This document shows, one piece after another, positions 1-8,527 of a DNA stretch of 10,639 bases. A program made the translations under genes and the position numbers. Source of the stretch: Conexibacter sp. (GTDB lineage Bacteria > Actinomycetota > Thermoleophilia > Solirubrobacterales > Solirubrobacteraceae); the NCBI GenBank assembly GCA_025964295.1, contig JAOPZD010000104.1, forward strand, positions 1 through 10,639. The letters run 5' to 3'. The first letter of the stretch is position 1, and each line of letters starts with the position of its first letter. Below the pieces are notes generated by a model that did no database searches, was not told the origin of the DNA, and worked only from the letters and a program-made list of their open reading frames with translations.

Positions 1-2034
1 GATGACCTTGCCGGGCCGCACGGTCAGGGCGACGTCGTCGACGGCGACCGTGCCGCCGTAGCGGACGGTGACGCCGCTGATCTCCAACGCGCGAGCGGGC
101 ACGGGCTGCGCCTCCCCGGCGGCCAGCGTCGTGGGCGTCGGCCACGAGCGCCTCCACGGGATCACGCGCCGCAGACGCTGGTCGATGAGGCGGCCGACGG
201 TGTTCACCTCCCGCGCGATGCCGTTCTGGTGGCTGACGACGATGATGAGCAGGAACAGGCCGCCGATGAGCGGCACGTAGTTGTCCACGGACCCGCCCCC
301 GAAGATCGAGTGCGAGATCTGCACGCCCAGCGTCCCGGGGGCGAGGATCGCGCCGAAGAACGAGCCGAGCACATAGCCGAGGCCACCGAGGACCGCCCAG
401 GCGACCATCGTGATCGACTGGAAGCTCGTGAAGCCGGTGTACACGAGGGTCGTGCTCTGGAACGCGAGCAGGATGCCACCGACCGCGGCGATCCCCGCCG
501 ACAGGGCGAAGGCGTACACCTTGGCGCCCACGACGCTGATGCCCAGCGCGGCGGCGGCGCGCTCGTTGGTCCGGACCGCGATCAGGCGCCGCCCGGTCCG
601 GCCGCGGCGCACGTTGGCGACGGCGAGCGCGACGACGACGAACACCAAGAGCGTCAGCAGGCCGTAGCGCGCCGGGTGGTCGACGGACTGGAAGTCCAGG
701 CCAAGGATGTTCGGCGAGTCCACCTGCGTGCCGCCGAAGCCGCCGGTGAGGTCGCCGTTGTTGAAGACCATGAGCTCGAGCGCGCTGCCGAGGCCGAGCG
801 TCACCACCGCGAGGTTGATGCCGCGCGCCCGGACCGCCGGCAGGGCGAACAGGACCCCGAGCGGGACCGTCGCGACGACGCCGACGACGGCCGCCGCCAG
901 GAACGGCAGGTCAAGGACCACGGCGGAGCGCCCCGCGATCCAGGCGCCGAAGCCGGCGAACGCGAACTGCGCGAGGGAAAGCTGGCCGGCGTACCCCGTC
1001 AGCACCACGATGGACAGCACGACGAGGCCGGTCGCCAGGGTGGAGGTGATCGCCAGGCTCCAGTCCTCGGCGAGGACCCCCTGCAGGACGCCCACCACGA
1101 GGACGCCCAAGGCCACGTACCCCGGCCGGATCCGGCCGGTCCCGATCGATGGCAGCCGCTGCAGGAAGTAGTCGCGCAGCGGAAGCGCCCGCCCACTGAT
1201 CACGATCATCACGATGATGACCAGGAACGGCACGCTCGAGCTCACGCCCGGTGTCTGCACGTAGCGCTGGATGATCGTCTGGGCGATGCCGAGCGCGATC
1301 GCCGCGGCGAACGCGACGGGGAACGAGCGGAAGCCGGCGATCAGCGCGGCCGCCATTGCCGCCACCACGATGCTCGTGGCGGTGCCCACCTCGAGCGTCA
1401 CGATCGGGGCGAGGAGGATCGCACCGAGCGCGGCGAGCGCCGAGCCGAGCGCCCAGTTGGCCATCGCGATGACGTCGGGCGACCAGCCCAGGGCCGCGGC
1501 GGCACGCTGGTTCTCGGCGACGGCCGTCGTTGCCAGCCCGAACTTCGTCTTGCGGTAGGTGAACCACAGGGCGCTGGTCAGCAGCGCGGCGATCCCCAGC
1601 AGGATCAGCCGGTCGACGGGCACGGTGACCCCGCCGCCGAGTCCGATGATGCTCGACGGCAGCTCGCTGTGGACCAGCAGCGTCTCGTCGCTGTACTGGA
1701 GCACCGCGTAGGACTGCAGCGTGATCAGGACCCCGAGCGTGGAGACCACCCGGACCAGCGGCGAGGCCCTGCGCAACGGCCGCATCAGCAGCAGGTGCAC
1801 GAGGACGCCGAGCACCGCGGCGATGAGGATGCCGAGGATCGCCGCCGGCACGAACGGGAGATGCTGCTGGTACTGCAGCTGCCACCAGGCGTAGCCGCCG
1901 ACCAGGCCCATCGCGCCCTGAGCGAAGTTGAGCACGCCGGAGCCGCGGTAGATCAGCAGCAGCCCCTGGGCGGCGAGGGTGTAGACGGCTCCGATGCCGA
2001 GGCCATAGATGCCGAACTGGATGACCTCAGACAT
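1..2034 (-). CDS. Fused branched-chain amino acid-type ABC transporter, LivH-LivM-LivG (3' end beyond window)
   Basis: The reverse strand is open for 678 codons from ATG at 2034 to base 1. Residues 1-285 form a LivH-type permease, hydrophobic throughout, with NFAQGAMG near 36-43 and an EAA-like coupling loop around 171-189 (AENQRAAAALG). After a linker (286-305) comes a LivM-type permease, about 306-605, with its signature TGYAGQLSLAQFAF at 346-359 and a second coupling loop at 486-505. A basic, Pro-rich linker leads to a LivG-type ATPase from about 648 (ALEISGVTVRYGGTVAVDDV), with the A-loop Tyr at 659. The window ends just before the Walker A motif. The predicted role is inner-membrane import of the ligand delivered by the lipoprotein at 5737-7044. 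A separate LivF ATPase is expected to the left. The start overlaps the P450 stop (TGATG) and has only a weak Shine-Dalgarno, which suggests translational coupling. Family identity is firm; substrate unknown. Confidence 0.93.
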   Translation of the reverse strand, partial: MSEVIQFGIYGLGIGAVYTLAAQGLLLIYRGSGVLNFAQGAMGLVGGYAWWQLQYQQHLPFVPAAILGILIAAVLGVLVHLLLMRPLRRASPLVRVVSTLGVLITLQSYAVLQYSDETLLVHSELPSSIIGLGGGVTVPVDRLILLGIAALLTSALWFTYRKTKFGLATTAVAENQRAAAALGWSPDVIAMANWALGSALAALGAILLAPIVTLEVGTATSIVVAAMAAALIAGFRSFPVAFAAAIALGIAQTIIQRYVQTPGVSSSVPFLVIIVMIVISGRALPLRDYFLQRLPSIGTGRIRPGYVALGVLVVGVLQGVLAEDWSLAITSTLATGLVVLSIVVLTGYAGQLSLAQFAFAGFGAWIAGRSAVVLDLPFLAAAVVGVVATVPLGVLFALPAVRARGINLAVVTLGLGSALELMVFNNGDLTGGFGGTQVDSPNILGLDFQSVDHPARYGLLTLLVFVVVALAVANVRRGRTGRRLIAVRTNERAAAALGISVVGAKVYAFALSAGIAAVGGILLAFQSTTLVYTGFTSFQSITMVAWAVLGGLGYVLGSFFGAILAPGTLGVQISHSIFGGGSVDNYVPLIGGLFLLIIVVSHQNGIAREVNTVGRLIDQRLRRVIPWRRSWPTPTTLAAGEAQPVPARALEISGVTVRYGGTVAVDDVALTVRPGKVI

Positions 2035-3377
2035 CACTTCATGACCATCGGGAGCGACGTCAGCCCGTTGAACGTCGCGGAGTTCAAGCGCACCGGGTCG
2101 GCGGCGAGCTCGAAGTCCGGGAACCGGTCGAGCAGGTGCTCGAGGGCCATGCGTGCCTCCAGCCGGGCGAGGTTGGAGCCGAGACACCGATGCGGTCCCC
2201 AGCCGAAGCCCATGTGCGGCGGGTTGGGCAGACGCGTGACGTCAAGGACGTCCGCGTTGTCCCACACGGTGTCGTCGCGGTTGGCGCTCGCGTACAGGAC
2301 GTACAGGAGGTCACCCTCCTCGATCACCTGGCCGGCGATCTCGGTGCGCTCCGTGGCCGTGCGCAGCAGGCCCCAGACCGGCGACAGGTAGCGGACCAGC
2401 TCGTCGATCGCCGTCGGGATCAGCTCGGGCTGGTCGATCAGGAGCCGGCGCTGGTCCGGATGCTGCGCCAGCAGCCGGACCATGCCGGAGATGACGTGGC
2501 GGGTCGTCTCGTTGCCGGCGAACAGGAACGTGTTGGCGAAGGCCACCATGTCGGGCTCGCTCAGCCGCTCGCCGTCGATCTCGGCGTTGAGCATCGCCGA
2601 GAGCATGTCCTCGGCCGGCTCCTCGCGGCGCAGACGCAACCGGTCGCGGACGTAGCGGTACATCGCGGCCGAGCTCTGGCGCAGCTGCTGCTCGGCCTCG
2701 CGGTCACCCTCGTCGAACGTGAGCGCGACGTCGTCGGACCACCTGACGAACTGGGCGCGGTCTTCGGGCGGCACGCCGAGGAACACGGCGATCACCTCGG
2801 CCGGGATCGGCACCGCGACCGCCTTGACGAAGTCAACCGTCTCGCCGGGCCGGATCGCGTCGAGCGCCCCGAAGATGATCTGCTCGATCTCGTCGTGGTA
2901 GTGGGAGACCATCCGCGGCGTGAAGGCCTTGGACACGAACTTGCGCAGGCGGGTGTGCCGCGGCGGGTCGACGATCGTGATCCTCGCGCCGGCGACGTCG
3001 CCGTCCGGTGCCGCCTTGCGGTGGCGCGCGAGCGACACCTCGCGGCGCAGCTCGGCGCGCGACATCTCGCCGCGGTCCAGGCGGCCACGCTGCTCGTCGT
3101 CGAGCAGGTCGGCGACCTGCTCGGGGAAGACGTTGTCGGTGAGCGTGAAGCCGCTCTCCGATGAGAAGAGCTCAGGTTGGGAGTTGACGTCCCGGATGTC
3201 CTCGTACCGCGACAGGACCCAGAACTTGCCCGGCTCGTACCAGTACACCGGCGCCTCGCGGCGCAGCTCCGCGAACGTCTCGTAGGGGTTGGCGTAGAAC
3301 TCGCGCGCGTCGAAGCGCGCGCGCTCGACGATCGGGGTTGCGTTAGGCAACGGACCGCTCTCCTCTTCTCCTGACAT
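2034..3377 (-). CDS. Cytochrome P450
   Basis: Soluble bacterial P450 of 447 residues without a membrane anchor. All hallmarks are visible: substrate/C-helix region DPPRHTRLRKFVSKAFTPR at 137-155; I-helix oxygen-activation motif AGNETT at 287-292; K-helix ExxR as ELVR at 326-329; and heme loop FGWGPHRCLG at 391-400 with the thiolate ligand Cys398. It would hydroxylate or otherwise mono-oxygenate a small organic substrate using electrons from ferredoxin and its reductase, neither encoded here. The segment between FSS (71-73) and DPPRHT (137) is about 65 residues, well longer than the usual B-C region, and is highly charged. It is followed directly by the permease fusion with a 1-base overlap, and has its own promoter with a TetR-type palindrome upstream. 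The ATG at 3377 has little Shine-Dalgarno. A purine-rich AGGAGAAGAGGAG at 3360-3372 precedes an in-frame TTG at 3350, so the true start may be nine codons later. The CYP family cannot be assigned by eye. Confidence 0.96.
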   Translation of the reverse strand: MSGEEESGPLPNATPIVERARFDAREFYANPYETFAELRREAPVYWYEPGKFWVLSRYEDIRDVNSQPELFSSESGFTLTDNVFPEQVADLLDDEQRGRLDRGEMSRAELRREVSLARHRKAAPDGDVAGARITIVDPPRHTRLRKFVSKAFTPRMVSHYHDEIEQIIFGALDAIRPGETVDFVKAVAVPIPAEVIAVFLGVPPEDRAQFVRWSDDVALTFDEGDREAEQQLRQSSAAMYRYVRDRLRLRREEPAEDMLSAMLNAEIDGERLSEPDMVAFANTFLFAGNETTRHVISGMVRLLAQHPDQRRLLIDQPELIPTAIDELVRYLSPVWGLLRTATERTEIAGQVIEEGDLLYVLYASANRDDTVWDNADVLDVTRLPNPPHMGFGWGPHRCLGSNLARLEARMALEHLLDRFPDFELAADPVRLNSATFNGLTSLPMVMK

Positions 3378-3421
3378 CGGCCTGAAACGCCGTCCCGGCC
3401 GACCCTTTGCTCCCGTCGGCG

Positions 3422-3450
3422 ACGCTACAGACCGAGCGCTCGGTTGTCAA
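3422..3450 (-). promoter_or_regulatory. Promoter of the P450-transporter pair with embedded operator
   Basis: On the minus strand, TTGACA (3450-3445) is followed after 17 bp by TAGCGT (3427-3422), an actinobacterial-style sigma70 TAnnnT -10 box. Transcription would begin near 3415, giving about 38 bases of leader before the ATG at 3377. The spacer is almost entirely the 14-bp palindrome at 3431-3444. The promoter lies just after the stop of the ABM gene (3467), so it can drive P450 and transporter independently of read-through from the upstream operon. It is called from sequence match alone. Confidence 0.7.
3431..3444. promoter_or_regulatory. TetR-type operator, copy 1 (P450 promoter)
   Basis: Perfect 14-bp palindrome ACCGAGCGCTCGGT filling the -35/-10 spacer, where a bound protein would block RNA polymerase. 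The same palindrome recurs at 7173-7186, and identity between the two sites extends over 22 bp (3430-3451 versus 7172-7193). Length and symmetry are typical of TetR-family operators. Assignment to the tandem TetR at 7262-8527 is inferred from adjacency. Confidence 0.75.
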
Positions 3451-3466
3451 CGAGTCAGAGACCATG

Positions 3467-3769
3467 TCACGCCGCCCCAAGGAACGTCCCGTGCACCGCC
3501 TCGCGACCCTCGATGAGGTCACTGCAGGCGTCCAGGATCGCGCGCAGGCGCGGGTCCTCGCGATGCGCCTGACCGGCCGCCGCGTCGGCGTACTGCTCGT
3601 AGAACCAGACGGCCGAATCGTCGGGCGTGGCGTGCATCCGGTAGATCTCGACCCCAGGGTCGTCCTGCGCCACGCCGATGAGCGGGCGCATGCGCGAGAG
3701 CAGCTCCTCGAAGCATCCGTGGCGCGCGATGAACTTCACGAACAGGGTGGGCTTGGCGTCATCGATCAT
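3467..3769 (-). CDS. ABM-fold (antibiotic biosynthesis monooxygenase / YgiN-like) protein
   Basis: Small 100-residue protein matching the dimeric alpha-beta barrel ABM family, which includes cofactor-independent quinol and polyketide monooxygenases and some non-enzymatic members. Visible family features are the opening strand TLFVKFIARHG (8-18), the helix FEELLSRMRPLI (20-31), DDPGVEIYRMH (36-46), the strand AVWFYEQYAD (53-62) and the downstream His69 in GQAHREDPRL. The full family length is present. An AGGAG sits 7 bases before the ATG. It is the fourth gene of the minus-strand operon, 30 bp after the SDR stop, consistent with oxidation of a phenolic or quinol intermediate, though the substrate is unknown. 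Small stress-related relatives exist, so the catalytic role is only likely. Confidence 0.85.
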   Translation of the reverse strand: MIDDAKPTLFVKFIARHGCFEELLSRMRPLIGVAQDDPGVEIYRMHATPDDSAVWFYEQYADAAAGQAHREDPRLRAILDACSDLIEGREAVHGTFLGAA

Positions 3770-3799
3770 GAGCGTGCTCCTGTGGTGTGGACGCAGCGC

Positions 3800-4696
3800 T
3801 CATGCGCGCCGCGGGTTAAGCGTGGTCGGGACGAAGGGGTCCGAGCCATCGACGATCTCGTGCCACCGCTCGATGATCTTCTCTGGTGTGAGCGACCGAT
3901 CGAAGAAGCCCGCGCCGTCGACGAAGTACTCGCGCGCGACGACGCCGGCGCCGGCGTTGTACATCTCCCCGGTGGTCGGGCACGTCGCGTGCGCGAGGAC
4001 GGCGAAGATCGGTGAGACCTGCTCTGCGCGGTTCGGGTCGGGCCCGTCCGCCGGAGCCTGTGGGACGCCCGCAACCTCGCCACCCGTCGCGGGATCGACC
4101 CACATGGCTGTGCGCGCCGACGGGTTGACTAGGTTGACCTTGACGCTCTCCTCCAGGCCCTCGGTCGCCAGGCACTTGGTCAAGCCGATGATGCCGGACT
4201 TCGACGCCCCATACGACACGCGGCTGGGCAGGCCGAGGACGCCGGCGCTCGACATCGTGTTGACGATGCGCCCGGTGCCCGAGGCGACGAGATGCGGCCA
4301 GGCCGCGAAGCACATCGCGGCCGTGCCGACGAGGTTGACGGTGACGTGCCGGACGAAGTTGTCCACGTCGGTCTCGGCCAGCGGGCGCGTCTCGAAGATG
4401 CCCGCGCTGTTGATCAGCGCGTCCAGGCGCCCGAAGGCCTCGATGGCCGTGGCGACGATCGCCTCCGCTCCCTCCTGCGTCGCGATGGACGCCACCGCGG
4501 CGACCGCCTCGCCGCCGTCGGCCCGGATCTCGTCGACGACCGCGTCGGCGGGGCTCGGCGCGCCGTCTCGCCCGGCAAGGTCGTTGATCACGACGCGGGC
4601 CCCGCGTGACGCGAGCAGCCGGGCGTGCTCCCGCCCAAGCCCTCCCCCGGCGCCGGTGACGATCACGACACGTCCATCGAAGCGCAACTGCTCCAT
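3800..4696 (-). CDS. Short-chain dehydrogenase/reductase, MFE-2 / 3-hydroxyacyl-CoA-type
   Basis: Classical SDR of 298 residues. The Rossmann glycine motif is TGAGGGLG at 14-21. Asp39 in VINDL, at the end of the second strand, predicts NAD(H) over NADP(H). NSAG is at 96-99, and the catalytic tetrad is Asn121, Ser149, Tyr162 and Lys166 (YGASK). The NDL region and the C-terminal extension (roughly 235-298, with LAHATCPTTGEMYNAGAG) resemble the dehydrogenase unit of peroxisomal multifunctional enzyme type 2 and its stand-alone bacterial relatives, which oxidise 3-hydroxyacyl-CoA or hydroxysteroid-like alcohols. It probably oxidises an alcohol made by the P450 or arising from a CoA-bound intermediate. 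I chose ATG 4696 because GAGGGA lies 7 bases upstream and the fold begins directly after it; an open frame continues upstream but lies inside the amidohydrolase gene. The gap to the amidohydrolase stop is 11 bp, so co-translation is likely. Confidence 0.93.
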   Translation of the reverse strand: MEQLRFDGRVVIVTGAGGGLGREHARLLASRGARVVINDLAGRDGAPSPADAVVDEIRADGGEAVAAVASIATQEGAEAIVATAIEAFGRLDALINSAGIFETRPLAETDVDNFVRHVTVNLVGTAAMCFAAWPHLVASGTGRIVNTMSSAGVLGLPSRVSYGASKSGIIGLTKCLATEGLEESVKVNLVNPSARTAMWVDPATGGEVAGVPQAPADGPDPNRAEQVSPIFAVLAHATCPTTGEMYNAGAGVVAREYFVDGAGFFDRSLTPEKIIERWHEIVDGSDPFVPTTLNPRRA

Positions 4697-4707
4697 GGTG
4701 CGTTCCC

Positions 4708-5607
4708 TCAGCCGCGCCCGCGGCGCGACAGGTAGGCGTCGGGTTCCCAGCGCAGCACGCGGCGCAGCGCCTGGCCGTACATGAGCTCGAGGTCGCTCCG
4801 GCCCAGCCCGTCGATCTCGCGGAGGTAGTCCGTGGCGTCGGCGTACGTGTTCAGGCTGCCGGTACGCGTGATGTCGCTGCCCCACAGCACGCGCGCGGAC
4901 CCGTATGCCTCGACGATGCGCTTGATGCCGGTCCAGAGGTCCCGGAACGGGTAGGGCTCGTGCGACAGCGCCGCCGCGCCGGTCAGCTTGAGCGCCACGT
5001 TGGGGTGCTTGGCCAGCGCGAGGACCGCGGGCAGGCGCTCCCACGGGTCATCGGGCGCGAGGCCGTACGCCGGCGGGGCGTGACCGACGCCCAGATGGTC
5101 GACCATGAACGGCACGTCCTCGTAGCGCCGGAAGATGTCGGTGACCGCGTCGGGCACCGGGTGGGGCAGCGAGAGCGCGACGGCGACGTGCTGGTCGCGA
5201 CACGCGCCGAGCACCCGCTCGTAATCCCCTGCCGCGAGACGCTCGGGATCGATGCGCAGCAGCCGCACGCCCCGCATGCCGCGCGCGACGTCGCGCGCAA
5301 GCACCTCCTCGAGGTCCGGAGCGGTGTGGTCGATCCACCCGACGACGGCGAACTTGCGGGGGTACTCGGCGAAGGTCTCCAGCTCGAGGCTGTTGTCATT
5401 GCCGTAGACGCCCTGCGGCGTCAGCACGCCGCCGTCGACGCCGGCGGCGGCCATCTCCACCACGAGCGTCTCGGGAGGCATCGGCACGCCCGTCTGGATG
5501 AGGATGTTCAGCGCGCGGGCCGCCATGTCGCCGCGGTACTCGCGGCGCCACGGCCGTGTGGGCCGGTCAGGCAGCCAGCAGTGCAGCTGGGCGTCGAGGA
5601 TCTCCAT
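4708..5607 (-). CDS. Amidohydrolase-related TIM-barrel hydrolase/decarboxylase (Amidohydro_2-like)
   Basis: A 299-residue protein of the amidohydrolase-2 type, a family that includes ACMSD-like decarboxylases and lactone hydrolases. It begins MEILDAQLHCW; His9 is the second His position of the usual DxHxH strand-1 motif, with Gln7 in place of the first His. The strand motif GVRLLRID is at 113-120, MVDHLG with His171 at 168-173, LKLTG at 207-211, and GSD with the catalytic-position Asp245 at 243-245. The C-terminal MYGQALRRVLRW (276-287) corresponds to the family's N-A-x-R-L-F ending. It may hydrolyse a lactone or amide, or decarboxylate an intermediate of the pathway. CAGGAG lies about 10 bases before the ATG. 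The gene follows the binding-protein gene after 129 bp and is 11 bp before the SDR, so it belongs to the same operon. The specific reaction cannot be assigned. Confidence 0.88.
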   Translation of the reverse strand: MEILDAQLHCWLPDRPTRPWRREYRGDMAARALNILIQTGVPMPPETLVVEMAAAGVDGGVLTPQGVYGNDNSLELETFAEYPRKFAVVGWIDHTAPDLEEVLARDVARGMRGVRLLRIDPERLAAGDYERVLGACRDQHVAVALSLPHPVPDAVTDIFRRYEDVPFMVDHLGVGHAPPAYGLAPDDPWERLPAVLALAKHPNVALKLTGAAALSHEPYPFRDLWTGIKRIVEAYGSARVLWGSDITRTGSLNTYADATDYLREIDGLGRSDLELMYGQALRRVLRWEPDAYLSRRGRG

Positions 5608-5703
5608 CGGTTCGGGACTCCTGGGGAAAGGGGATGAGAGGTCGCCACCGCCCGCCCCGGGCGCCGCGAAGCGGTCGCCGGAGCGGACGGATGGCGGGTT
5701 CGA

Positions 5704-5730
5704 GAGCTCGCCGGTCCCGCCGCCGAGCTC
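5704..5730 (-). terminator. Intercistronic hairpin after the binding-protein gene (attenuator/partial terminator)
   Basis: Six bases after the stop codon of the lipoprotein gene, the minus-strand transcript can fold an 11-bp stem (5730-5720 with 5714-5704) with one G-G mismatch and a 5-base loop; the outer part is the self-complementary GAGCTC. No U-tract follows, so it is not a textbook intrinsic terminator. Hairpins here often stabilise the upstream message or cause partial termination, leaving more binding protein than enzymes, which would suit this operon. Function is inferred. Confidence 0.5.
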
Positions 5731-5736
5731 GGGTAT

Positions 5737-7044
5737 TCAGGCCTTCGGGTCGAACGGCTTGCCGTCGAGCAGGTTGGTCATGTCGAAGAAGCGACCGTTC
5801 TCGTAGGCGCCGATCTTCCCGTCCTTGACGACCGAGAGCCCGATCTTGCGATTGAACATCCGCGGGTACTTGCCGCCCAGGCCCGTGAACTCCTGGGTCA
5901 GGTCGAGATCCGCCTGCAGGCCGTCCATCTTCAGGTCGGACGCCTTGTTCGCCGCCTCGATGAACGTGGCGTGGTCGATCGTCCCCTTCATCCCCTGGAC
6001 GATCTTCGTGAACGCCACCAGCGACGCCCAGGTGACCTGCGCGCGGCCGTTGTCGCCGTTCGGGACCCCGGCGGCCTTCGTGGCGTCCCGGTAGTCGTTC
6101 CAGATCGGGAGCGAGATGTCCGAGGCGGTGTTCGCGATGACCGCGCCCTCGAGCTCCGGCGCGAAGGCGGAGAGCTGGTCCGGGCCCACGACGCCGGCGT
6201 TGAAGCCCAGCTTCTGCTTCTTGCCCTGCTGCTTCCAGGTGGTCATCCACTGCTGGAACGAGGTCGGGTTGGTGAGCGAGCCGGCGAACAGGCAGTCCCT
6301 GCCGTCGGTGGCGCGCGCCACATAGGGCGTGATGTCGGGGACCGACAGCTGCGGCAGCGTGACGGTCGTTACGCCTCCGACGCCGAGCGACTTGCCCGCG
6401 TTGTTGACGATCATCGCCTGGAACTTGCCGATGTCCAACGCGTAGTTGGTGAAGGCGATCTTCTTGCAGCCCTGCATCGCCAGACCGGCGACGACGCCCT
6501 CGATGGTCGACAGCGAGCAGGTCGCGGTGGGGAAGGAGACGGGGCTCGTGAACTCGTCGACCGCGAGGTTGCAGGCGGCGCCGAACCAGGCCGTGTGGCC
6601 CTTCTCATAGACCGGGACCACGTTGGGCGCGAAGTACGACGTCCCGCCGACGGCCGCGACCACGCCGTCCTTGATCGCCTGGCGCGCGCAGTTGACCGAG
6701 TCCTGGGTGACCTGGTGGTCGTCGCAGGTCTCGATCTGGAGCGGGCGGCCGTTGATGCCGCCCTTGTGGTTGATGTAGGTCTCGTAGGCCTTGCCGACGT
6801 TGATGGCATTGGGGATGCCGTCGTTGTTGAGGCCCTGACCCTTGATGGGCGCCTGGATCATGATCTTGATCGACGAGCCATTCGGCTTGTCGGCGGATGC
6901 CGCGGTGGCGGACCCGCCGGACGACCCGCCTGAGCCGTCATCGCTACTGCCGCACGCGGCGACGCCGACGGCGAGGACCCCGACGACAGCTCCAACCCCC
7001 AGCGCACGGAACGACCGCCAGCGCTTGACCCCGTTGCTCTCCAT
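5737..7044 (-). CDS. LivK-type ABC transporter substrate-binding lipoprotein
   Basis: A 435-residue extracytoplasmic binding protein of the type-1 periplasmic fold (Peripla_BP_6 / LivK-like). The N-terminus has a basic n-region (KRWRSFR), a hydrophobic stretch and the lipobox VAAC at 28-31. Cys31 is the lipidation site, followed by the flexible Gly/Ser linker usual for lipoproteins of monoderms. Family strands follow: SIKIMIQAPIKGQG; NVGKAYETYINHKGGINGRPLQI with the typical GGINGR turn; and AVGGTSYFAPNVVPVYEKG. Several Cys residues (for example in ETCDD, VNCARQ, AACNL, TATCSL, QGCKK, RDCLF) may form disulfides. ATG 7044 is chosen because AGGAGG lies 6 bases upstream and the signal peptide begins there; an upstream in-frame GTG (7095) lacks both. 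It is the first gene behind the palindrome-controlled promoter and is separated from its presumed membrane partner (livHMG) by four enzyme genes. LivK relatives bind amino acids but also aromatic acids, so the ligand is open. Confidence 0.94.
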   Translation of the reverse strand: MESNGVKRWRSFRALGVGAVVGVLAVGVAACGSSDDGSGGSSGGSATAASADKPNGSSIKIMIQAPIKGQGLNNDGIPNAINVGKAYETYINHKGGINGRPLQIETCDDHQVTQDSVNCARQAIKDGVVAAVGGTSYFAPNVVPVYEKGHTAWFGAACNLAVDEFTSPVSFPTATCSLSTIEGVVAGLAMQGCKKIAFTNYALDIGKFQAMIVNNAGKSLGVGGVTTVTLPQLSVPDITPYVARATDGRDCLFAGSLTNPTSFQQWMTTWKQQGKKQKLGFNAGVVGPDQLSAFAPELEGAVIANTASDISLPIWNDYRDATKAAGVPNGDNGRAQVTWASLVAFTKIVQGMKGTIDHATFIEAANKASDLKMDGLQADLDLTQEFTGLGGKYPRMFNRKIGLSVVKDGKIGAYENGRFFDMTNLLDGKPFDPKA

Positions 7045-7156
7045 GACTCTCCTCCTGTGTGGTTCCGGTGGACCCTGCACCCCTTGCGGCAGCACGACGT
7101 CGCCCCGCGCCGGGGGCGTCCTCTCTCCTGCGCCGCAGGCTCGGGATCAACCGAGC
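7045..7156 (-). other. Leader of the binding-protein transcript with two short hairpins
   Basis: From the predicted start near 7156 to ATG 7044, the leader is about 112 bases. It holds two short perfect inverted repeats: CCTGCG/CGCAGG around a single base at 7127-7139, and GCCCC/GGGGC at 7102-7117. The strong Shine-Dalgarno AGGAGGAGAG is at 7047-7056. No known riboswitch architecture is recognised. The hairpins may be incidental at this G+C content. Confidence 0.35.
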
Positions 7157-7162
7157 GCGGCG

Positions 7163-7192
7163 AAGCTACCTGACCGAGCGCTCGGTTGTCAA
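7163..7192 (-). promoter_or_regulatory. Promoter of the binding-protein/enzyme operon with embedded operator
   Basis: Minus strand: TTGACA (7192-7187), an 18-bp spacer, then TAGCTT (7168-7163) as the -10 box. The palindrome at 7173-7186 begins directly after the -35 box, exactly as in the P450 promoter. It would drive the binding-protein gene and the amidohydrolase, SDR and ABM genes behind it. It is called from sequence match and from the repeat of the same layout 3.7 kb away. Confidence 0.7.
7173..7186. promoter_or_regulatory. TetR-type operator, copy 2 (divergent region)
   Basis: Perfect palindrome ACCGAGCGCTCGGT, identical to 3431-3444. It lies between the divergent tandem-TetR gene and the binding-protein gene, 76 bp before the TetR ATG, so it could serve both repression of the operon and autoregulation. 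The regulator-operator pairing is inferred from position. Confidence 0.75.
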
Positions 7193-7205
7193 CCGGGCGC
7201 TCGGC
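7192..7205. promoter_or_regulatory. Second, imperfect operator copy
   Basis: ACCGGGCGCTCGGC matches the perfect palindrome at 12 of 14 positions and is centred 19 bp from it, about two helical turns, so it lies on the same DNA face. It overlaps the -35 edge of the minus-strand promoter by one base and extends toward the TetR gene. Two adjacent sites would allow cooperative binding or a four-headed contact by a dimer of the tandem TetR. No such second site is seen at the P450 promoter. Confidence 0.5.
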
Positions 7206-7250
7206 TGCGTGGTCGCGCACCGCCGACTACGGTTGTATTCGTGTCCCCGA

Positions 7251-7257
7251 AGAGAGG
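7251..7257 (+). promoter_or_regulatory. Ribosome binding site deciding the TetR start
   Basis: AGAGAGG ends 4 bases before ATG 7262, favouring that start over the long upstream extension of the open frame, which would run back through the promoter region and the neighbouring gene. An in-frame GTG at 7241 lies 7 bases after a TACGGT (-10-like, 7228-7233), so a leaderless GTG start adding seven residues is a weaker alternative. Confidence 0.55.
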
Positions 7258-7261
7258 CTCG

Positions 7262-8527
7262 ATGACCGACTCCCTGCTCACCAAGGAACAGACCTCAACC
7301 CAGATCCTCGTCACGTCCGCGCGCCTCTTCGCCGACCACGGCTACGACGCGACCCGCATCAAGGAGATCGCCGAAGCGACCGGCCTCTCGAAAGCCTCGC
7401 TCTACAACCACTTCTCGGCGAAGAGCGAGATCCTCTATGAACTGCAGATGCGCTCCTGGCAGGAGCACATCGCCGGCGCGGAAGAGGCGCTCAAGCAGGC
7501 CGGCGGCGACGACCGGGCCGCGATCGAGTTGCTCGGGCGAGCACATGTCCATGCGCTCCTGGGCCTGCCGACGAGCATCGGACTGACCGCCCTCGAGACG
7601 AAAGGGCTGTCCGAGGTTCAGCACCAGGCCGTCGATGCGGAGCGCGCGCAGTACCAGGAGTTGGTGAGCGGGGTGGTGCGCCGGGGGCAGAAGAGCGGAC
7701 TGCTGCGCGACGACGTCGGAGAGCGCGAGCTGGTTCTCGCGTTTGCGACGCTGCTGAATGGCTCCCTGATCGGCCGCGCGCACGAAGACGGGCAGGCGAT
7801 CACCGAACTGTCGGACACGGCCACAGGGCTCTTCCTCGACGGCTTGCGAGATCCGCAGTGGGCGCCCGGACCGGCCTCCAGCTCGCCCAAGCGCCGTGCC
7901 TTCCAGTTCGACGTTCCCGCCATCCTGGCCGAGGATGAGACGTTCGGGTCCGCCCGGTCGAACGAGATCCTCGACACGGCGATCCTGCTGTTCTGGGAGA
8001 AGGGCTACGCGCCGACGACGACCCGCGACCTCTCCAGGGCACTCGGCCTGGCGAACAGCTCGCTCTACCACCACATCGCCGAAAAGGAACAGCTCCTCTT
8101 CGGCGCCTACCAGCGGGGCTACCGCAAGCTCTACGCCATCATGGAGGACACCTTCGGCTCCGTCGACAAGGACGAGATTGATCGGGTCCAAGCCTTCCTG
8201 ACCATCCACACGGAGTCGATGCTGCTCGACTCCCACCGGTCCAGCATGATGGTCAACGGCGTCCGCTACCTCGCCTCCCGCCGGCTCGAGCTGGTCGTCG
8301 ACCTCCACCACCGCGTCCGCAGTGCCTTGCGCGCCGTCATCGAGGACGCGCAGGCCACCGGCGCGGCGCGCACGGACCTCCCGTCCGAGACGACCGCGCG
8401 GCTTTTGCTCGGCGGATGCCAGTGGAGCACGCAGTGGTACCAGCCCGAGGGTCCGTGGACGGCGCGTCAGGCAGGTGCCCTGCTCGCCAAGGTGTGGACC
8501 GAAGGGGCGGTACGCGCGCCGGCCTGA
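7262..8527 (+). CDS. Tandem (double) TetR-family transcriptional regulator
   Basis: A 421-residue protein, about twice the length of a normal TetR repressor, containing two complete TetR units. Unit 1 (about 12-197) has its helix-turn-helix at 33-52 with IAEATGLSKASLYNHFSAK; unit 2 (about 232-421) has it at 253-272 with LSRALGLANSSLYHHIAEK. The halves share the pattern A-x-G-L-x-x-x-S-L-Y-x-H-x-x-x-K and are joined by a Pro/Ser-rich linker (198-230). Each N-terminal three-helix head is followed by its own helical ligand-binding or dimerisation domain. TetR proteins normally repress as dimers and release DNA on ligand binding; this one may work as a covalent pseudo-dimer. It is divergent from the substrate-binding operon with palindromes in between, so it is the likely local repressor and may regulate itself. 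Ligand unknown. Start chosen by the RBS at 7251-7257. Confidence 0.93.
   Translation: MTDSLLTKEQTSTQILVTSARLFADHGYDATRIKEIAEATGLSKASLYNHFSAKSEILYELQMRSWQEHIAGAEEALKQAGGDDRAAIELLGRAHVHALLGLPTSIGLTALETKGLSEVQHQAVDAERAQYQELVSGVVRRGQKSGLLRDDVGERELVLAFATLLNGSLIGRAHEDGQAITELSDTATGLFLDGLRDPQWAPGPASSSPKRRAFQFDVPAILAEDETFGSARSNEILDTAILLFWEKGYAPTTTRDLSRALGLANSSLYHHIAEKEQLLFGAYQRGYRKLYAIMEDTFGSVDKDEIDRVQAFLTIHTESMLLDSHRSSMMVNGVRYLASRRLELVVDLHHRVRSALRAVIEDAQATGAARTDLPSETTARLLLGGCQWSTQWYQPEGPWTARQAGALLAKVWTEGAVRAPA

What the first reader, a model, noticed from the sequence alone, without database searches (positions are those of the whole stretch)
3430..7193. Identical 22-bp operator-promoter block at two places, palindrome locked in the -35/-10 spacer
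Blocks 3430-3451 and 7172-7193 are identical over 22 bp, including ACCGAGCGCTCGGT and the TTGACA of the minus strand. In both, the palindrome starts directly after the -35 box and a TAnnnT -10 box follows at 17 or 18 bp. The exact geometry repeated 3.7 kb apart is hard to explain by chance and defines a local regulon splitting the cluster into two transcription units.
Basis: partly seen in the sequence, partly recalled or inferred. Interest (0 to 1): 0.72.

Follow-up and report, generated by a model that had tools for sequence, protein, structure and literature searches.

The report
Twin repressor-controlled promoters of one cluster
Two matching on/off switches in front of the two halves of a gene cluster look like landing sites for one repressor protein encoded next door, a well-known kind of control that is unusual here mainly because the repressor is two repressors fused into one chain.

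Summary
In detail: 3430-3451 and 7172-7193 are identical over 22 bp, and TTGACA (minus strand) abuts a perfect 14-bp palindrome ACCGAGCGCTCGGT, with TAnnnT 17 or 18 bp after TTGACA. The window's only two TTGACA, both strands, are these two; an exact 14-mer appeared in 0 of 400 simulated windows. A third, imperfect copy (7192-7205) lies between livK and the divergent regulator gene. Best reading: a TetR-type operator inside the -35/-10 spacer, used twice, repressing livK-amidohydrolase-SDR-ABM and P450-LivHM, probably also the regulator. The candidate regulator is a double TetR in one chain; among the rows shown its only full-length solved match is Mce3R. Both halves have PfmR as best solved relative, and PfmR's promoter consensus resembles the site (PMC7022988). 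PaaR of Burkholderia uses such repeats in the same spacer position (PMC2770484). So the geometry is a known kind. Odd point: Mce3R binds non-palindromic DNA, this candidate site is a perfect palindrome. Binding, transcription starts and conservation in orthologous clusters are untested; no own genome or orthologous locus could be fetched.

The parts
3430..3451 (-). Block 1: -35 TTGACA (3450-3445), operator O1 ACCGAGCGCTCGGT (3444-3431); -10 TAGCGT follows at 3427-3422, spacer 17; predicted transcription start about 3415
   Evidence: start inferred
3417..3428 (-). Continuation of the block 1 similarity over the -10 region (GTAGCGTCGCCG)
7172..7193 (-). Block 2: -35 TTGACA (7192-7187), operator O2 ACCGAGCGCTCGGT (7186-7173); -10 TAGCTT follows at 7168-7163, spacer 18; predicted transcription start about 7156
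   Evidence: start inferred
7158..7169 (-). Continuation of the block 2 similarity over the -10 region (GTAGCTTCGCCG)
7192..7205 (.). O3, imperfect operator ACCGGGCGCTCGGC (2 mismatches), 19 bp centre to centre from O2, upstream of the livK -35 and between livK and the regulator gene
7241..8527 (+). Double TetR regulator (GTG at 7241 or ATG at 7262); two TetR_N stretches, C-terminal half TetR_C_24; candidate repressor
5737..7044 (-). Periplasmic binding protein (Peripla_BP_6, livK-like), first gene behind block 2
4708..5607 (-). Amidohydrolase_2 family protein
3800..4696 (-). SDR oxidoreductase; its 4 solved relatives at 1e-40 are (3R)-hydroxyacyl-CoA dehydrogenase / 17-beta-HSD4 / MFE-2 type proteins
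3467..3769 (-). ABM (antibiotic biosynthesis monooxygenase) domain protein, last gene of the livK group
2034..3377 (-). Cytochrome P450, first gene behind block 1; best solved relatives are two CYP125MRCA entries, then CYP126
1..2034 (-). LivH/LivM-type permease (two BPD_transp_2 stretches) behind the P450 gene; the last residues before the window edge look like the start of an ABC ATPase (my reading)

Best explanation
The two blocks are two copies of one regulated promoter. A TetR-type repressor, most likely the double TetR protein encoded divergently at 7241-8527, sits on the 14-bp palindrome that fills most of the -35/-10 spacer and so keeps RNA polymerase off; an inducer from the pathway releases it. 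Block 2 drives the solute-binding protein, amidohydrolase, SDR and ABM genes, block 1 drives the P450 and the membrane permease of the same Liv-type transporter, so the two halves of one uptake-and-oxidation route switch together. O3 beside O2 gives a second, weaker site that probably tightens livK repression and covers the regulator's own promoter (autoregulation). Shown: sequence, geometry, non-chance repetition, gene order, domain content, and (as a prediction) a single-chain two-headed TetR fold like Mce3R. Inferred: which protein binds, repression rather than activation, the inducer, autoregulation and the transcript boundaries.
Against: No binding or transcription data. No orthologous locus or own genome could be examined, so conservation and specificity are untested. 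Mce3R, described in PMC11667970 as the first solved double TetR, binds non-palindromic 25-bp sites, which does not predict a perfect palindrome. The two recognition helices here are alike but not equal (SKASLYNHF and ANSSLYHHI). PfmR's in vitro consensus (CTGACCGATCGGTCAG) is in another register from ours. The -10 boxes are weak (3 of 6).
Confidence: 0.72

Rival explanations
1. The palindromes are real TetR-type operators, but a different TetR elsewhere in the genome binds them; the double TetR controls something else or binds a neighbouring asymmetric site.
For: Mce3R binds asymmetric sites (PMC11667970). On one alphaproteobacterial plasmid a single-domain TetR carries the same helix as both halves of the plasmid's double TetR, so a single TetR could compete for the same palindrome.
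Against: No other TetR among the window proteins scanned; both halves of the double TetR are PfmR-like and the PfmR promoter consensus resembles the site; O2 and O3 lie in its own divergent gap.
Confidence: 0.18
2. The blocks are a recently copied promoter segment; identity reflects a duplication or gene conversion, with regulation incidental.
For: 22 identical bp plus 11 of 12 further bp with one 1-bp shift.
Against: The similarity stops one base upstream of the -35 box (upstream flank no better than random, 91%) and near the predicted start downstream, that is at functional borders; O3 shows a palindrome without the -35 and -10 boxes of the minus-strand promoter.
Confidence: 0.06
3. Chance similarity in 70% GC DNA.
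For: 22 bp is just above the longest repeat of simulated windows (21 bp in 6 of 300); perfect 14-bp palindromes are common here (8 in the window); in phage records a 34-bp stretch of block 2 matches capsid genes of Streptomyces phages at 91% (E 2e-3), so long partial matches do occur in coding DNA.
Against: No exact 14-mer in 400 simulated windows; both TTGACA hexamers of the window abut it; both blocks lie between genes at the head of gene groups; 0 exact 14-mers in 11.94 Mb of 6 plasmid records.
Confidence: 0.02

Closest known systems
PaaR (BCAL0210) of Burkholderia cenocepacia and its paa promoters
   Same: TetR-type repressor; near-perfect inverted repeats between -35 and -10 at several promoters of one degradation pathway, that of paaA being ACCGACCGGTCGGT, 12 of 14 identical to ours (PMC2770484, passages read)
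   Different: Not described as a double TetR in the passages read; target genes are phenylacetate genes, none of which was seen in this window; the centre of the palindrome differs
PfmR / TTHB023 of Thermus thermophilus
   Same: Best solved-structure relative of both halves; promoter-derived consensus TACCGACCGNTNGGTN; two sites at its own promoter (PMC7022988, passages)
   Different: Single TetR unit (190 aa); its selected consensus CTGACCGATCGGTCAG is in another register; controls fatty-acid and phenylacetate genes
Mce3R of Mycobacterium tuberculosis
   Same: Double TetR in one chain; the only full-length structural match among the rows shown; autoregulated, two operator sites at its target promoter (PMC11667970: abstract, sections 20 and 25, passages)
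   Different: 16% identity over the structural alignment; its sites are 25-bp asymmetric, not palindromic; different target genes
KstR2 (Rv3557c)
   Same: Among the best solved relatives of the C-terminal half
   Different: Single TetR unit; I did not compare its operator with ours

Membership tests
TetR-family operator in a core promoter (PaaR-like arrangement) | Inverted repeat of about 14-18 bp overlapping the -35/-10 region | tested here: met
TetR-family operator in a core promoter (PaaR-like arrangement) | Same repeat at more than one promoter of the cluster | tested here: met
   O1 and O2 exact, O3 imperfect
TetR-family operator in a core promoter (PaaR-like arrangement) | Regulator binds the repeat and mutation of it relieves repression | not testable with these tools
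   needs EMSA, footprint or reporter
PaaR regulon | Controls paa phenylacetate degradation genes | tested here: not met
   no paa gene among the 9 window proteins scanned against Pfam; genes outside the window not seen
Double TetR (Mce3R-like) regulators | Two complete TetR units, each with its HTH, in one chain | tested here: met
   two TetR_N stretches; halves 27% identical over 89 aa
Double TetR (Mce3R-like) regulators | The two units fold on each other as one two-headed repressor | tested here: met
Mce3R ortholog | Non-palindromic 25-bp operator sites | tested here: inconclusive
   the candidate site is a perfect 14-bp palindrome, but what the protein binds is untested
Mce3R ortholog | Located upstream of a mce (yrbE-mce) operon | tested here: not met
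   neighbours are livK, P450 and others; no mce or yrbE family at E 0.001 in the 9 proteins
PfmR-like DNA recognition | Site with half-sites ACCGA / TCGGT | tested here: met
   comparison of the site with sequences in PMC7022988; the register of the selected consensus differs, and binding is untested

The most novel reading that the evidence does not exclude
A subclass of double TetR regulators is pseudo-symmetric: both built-in DNA-reading heads recognise the same half-site, so one polypeptide chain alone reads a perfect palindrome, unlike Mce3R. Because such chains may also pair (as Mce3R does), one pair could hold O1 and O2, 3.74 kb apart, and loop the cluster so that both promoters are switched as one. 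A second subclass points the same way: six alphaproteobacterial double TetRs (two of them near-identical) carry almost the same helix in both halves ([EK]AGS[IV]YYHF, 6 of 6) beside a shared repeat TCTAACnnnnGTTnGA that recurs on all six plasmids.
Probability: 0.35. Interest if true: 0.55.

Novelty: new member of a known kind. Interest (0 to 1): 0.3.

Why it matters
It predicts the regulator, the operator and the target genes of an uncharacterised uptake and oxidation cluster, so function can be tested directly. Beyond that it offers a clean case for a small open question: whether double TetR repressors always read asymmetric DNA, as the solved example Mce3R suggests, or whether some read palindromes with two equal heads.

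Tried and rejected
Genome-wide count of the 14-mer: not possible, no own genome is held. Relatives of the regulator in genome contigs: 35 stretches matched the short patterns, 0 were confirmed; in viral contigs 98 matched, 0 confirmed. The 20-mer TTGACAACCGAGCGCTCGGT: 0 exact matches in genome contigs; the 22-mer: 0 in viral contigs. So I could not test conservation of the promoters in orthologous clusters. Similar DNA for the 56-bp region 7160-7215: plasmids 12 records, E 0.3 to 4; of these I fetched three and read one, Caballeronia, which lies inside a long open frame that looks like a transporter (my reading). Phages: 45 records, 15 listed; 14 of the 15 lie in annotated capsid, portal or adaptor genes, one record has no annotation; the best (E 2e-3) match 34 bp of block 2 at 91% in capsid genes. 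I took these for chance, but they show that such matches occur in coding DNA. No Rfam family at gathering score in the window. Hairpin or terminator reading: the sites are not in the terminator list. The livK-like protein and the amidohydrolase have no solved relative at 1e-5, so the substrate stays open; the CYP125-like and MFE-2-like hits only hint at a steroid, terpenoid or branched acyl substrate.

Palindromes beside other double TetRs were tested at 13 regions, the window's own and 12 loci that I chose from the hits (60 shuffles each). Only 4 of 13 had a best inverted repeat reached in at most 5% of shuffles: window, L021, L025, L027. In the window the best one was not the 14-mer but a longer repeat spanning the right half of O2 and the left half of O3; L025 and L027 are near-identical there. 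L003, L024, L026 and L028 did not pass on their own (0.15, 0.78, 0.08, 0.30), though they share the repeat with L025 and L027 at the same aligned place; L001, L019, L020, L022 and L023 showed nothing clear (0.2 to 0.63). So double TetRs are not generally next to a palindrome. L021 has one although its two helices differ, which goes against a simple helix rule.

The paper library held no paper using the exact 14-mer as an operator (one unrelated paper); related strings gave that paper and two on phenylacetate degradation. Searches for tandem or double TetR wording returned mostly noise; PMC10663510 (passages) concerns a single TetR and was not used. Mce3R was found through the structure-sequence search. 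Searches (0 papers; 15 of 47 listed; 12 of 182 listed; 10 of 11 listed) were seen as listings; only PMC2770484, PMC11667970, PMC7022988 and PMC10663510 were opened, none in full.

Full report
WHAT IS THERE. The 22-bp blocks at 3430-3451 and 7172-7193 are identical. Read on the minus strand each is G-TTGACA-ACCGAGCGCTCGGT-C: a consensus -35 hexamer with a perfect 14-bp palindrome directly behind it. TAGCGT (3427-3422) and TAGCTT (7168-7163) follow at spacers of 17 and 18 bp. Two additions: the likeness continues over the -10 region as GTAGC[G/T]TCGCCG, 11 of 12 with a 1-bp shift (random 20-bp pairs score as well in 0.24%, 40-bp pairs in 2.6%), and it is absent upstream of the -35 box (91%). A third, imperfect palindrome ACCGGGCGCTCGGC lies at 7192-7205, 19 bp centre to centre from the second perfect one.

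IS IT CHANCE. Length alone is a modest argument: in 300 order-3 Markov windows the longest repeat reached 21 bp six times and never 22, and the window holds 8 perfect 14-bp palindromes. Content is a strong one: 0 of 400 simulated windows held an exact 14-mer, the mean number with up to 2 mismatches was 0.26 against 4 observed, and the window's only two TTGACA hexamers on either strand (1.8 expected) both abut the palindrome. One of the four places (9732) is inside the kinase reading frame and is presumably background. As an outside background the exact 14-mer has 0 matches in 6 plasmid records totalling 11.94 Mb, four of them actinobacterial (two further records were not searched), and ACCGAnCGnTCGGT has one place in each of 2 of 4 actinobacterial records, 10.46 Mb. 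One of those two, in Embleya, stands in front of a reading frame that looks like an SDR, with a near copy 67 bp further on (the record is not annotated there), so the sequence class is used elsewhere; the other lies within a 375-aa open frame.

NEIGHBOURS. Minus strand behind block 2: livK-like binding protein, amidohydrolase_2, SDR, ABM protein; behind block 1: cytochrome P450, then a LivH/LivM-type permease. The transporter's binding protein and membrane part thus stand behind different copies of the same promoter, which gives a plain reason for having two copies. The P450's best solved relatives are two CYP125MRCA entries and CYP126, the SDR's are MFE-2 type hydroxyacyl-CoA dehydrogenases; the substrate is unknown. 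The plus-strand gene 7241/7262-8527 encodes the only TetR-type protein found in the window. Its two close relatives begin near the GTG at 7241, and TACGGT at 7228-7233 would fit a leaderless start there (inference).

LINK BETWEEN REGULATOR AND SITE. Searched separately, each half has PfmR (3vpr) of Thermus as best solved relative. PfmR's promoter-derived consensus TACCGACCGNTNGGTN, quoted in PMC7022988 (passages), agrees with our site and its flank at 11 of 13 specified positions (my count), and a natural site, CCTACCGACCGGTCGG, binds at 0.3 nM. A caveat: the consensus selected in vitro (CTGACCGATCGGTCAG) is in another register. The helices read SKASLYNHF and ANSSLYHHI here and SKAALYHHF in PfmR (alignments). 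PaaR of Burkholderia has near-perfect repeats between -35 and -10 of paaA, paaZ and paaH, that of paaA being ACCGACCGGTCGGT, 12 of 14 identical to ours; [quoted passage not shown] These precedents make both the site and the mode ordinary.

HOW IT MOST LIKELY WORKS. Repressor on the palindrome excludes RNA polymerase from a promoter with good spacing; inducer releases it. Spacers of 17 and 18 bp do not need an activator of the MerR type (recalled). O3 adds a second contact at the livK and regulator promoters. Steps shown: sequence and geometry. Steps inferred: binding, repression, inducer, autoregulation, two transcripts.

WHAT IS ODD. Mce3R's solved complex has one chain spanning an asymmetric 25-bp site with two unlike heads (PMC11667970, abstract and sections 20 and 25). 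Here the candidate site is a perfect palindrome, twice. Either the two heads read the same half-site, or chains pair like head with like head, or another protein binds. As a side test I looked at 12 other double TetR loci. Six alphaproteobacterial ones share TCTAACnnnnGTTnGA upstream of the regulator, have almost the same helix in both halves (6 of 6), and the pattern occurs on all six plasmids 4 to 8 times forward against 0 to 1 for the reversed control. On the one plasmid checked, 8 of 8 sites lie between the listed genes (from the annotations, which may be incomplete). Against this: only two of the six repeats, on near-identical sequences, beat shuffles on their own, the six are related genes, and the checked plasmid also has a single TetR with the same helix, so who binds is open. 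Of the other six loci only L021 has a clear palindrome, and its helices differ. The evidence is suggestive, not a rule.

LIMITS. No own genome, no orthologous cluster, no expression data. Recalled, from no call: the MerR spacing argument, the general TetR mechanism, and the reading of TAnnnT as a -10 box.

VERDICT. A real, well-built TetR-type operator-promoter module used twice in one cluster; a new member of a known kind. The double TetR with a palindromic site is the part worth a specialist's attention.

Noticed in passing
L003, L024-L028 (plasmids NZ_CP085157.1, NZ_CP030943.1, NZ_CP018081.1, NZ_CP022419.1, CP010856.1, NZ_CP114787.1): A repeat TCTAACnnnnGTTnGA recurs on all six alphaproteobacterial plasmids (4 to 8 forward matches each, control 0 to 1) and lies upstream of a double TetR whose two helices are nearly identical. 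On NZ_CP085157.1, the one checked, 8 of 8 sites lie between listed genes, mostly acyl-CoA degradation genes. Looks like a plasmid-wide catabolic regulon.
   Followed up: partly
window 7228-7243: TACGGT followed by GTG at 7241: a possible leaderless start of the double TetR gene; relatives P0001 and P0002 begin near this GTG rather than at the ATG at 7262.
   Followed up: partly
window 7150-7158: An isolated half-site ACCGAGCGC close to the predicted livK start (read).
   Followed up: no
window 3340-3377: The P450 start is ambiguous: an ATG at 3377 or a TTG further in, behind a purine-rich GGAGAAGAGGAG stretch (read).
   Followed up: no
window 1-2034: LivH- and LivM-type permease parts are encoded as one continuous reading frame with two BPD_transp_2 stretches.
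   Followed up: no
L018 1501-1514 and 1568-1581 (Embleya sp. NBC_00888): ACCGACCGGTCGGT and a near copy 67 bp further on, in front of a reading frame that looks like an SDR: another probable TetR operator pair of the same class.
   Followed up: partly
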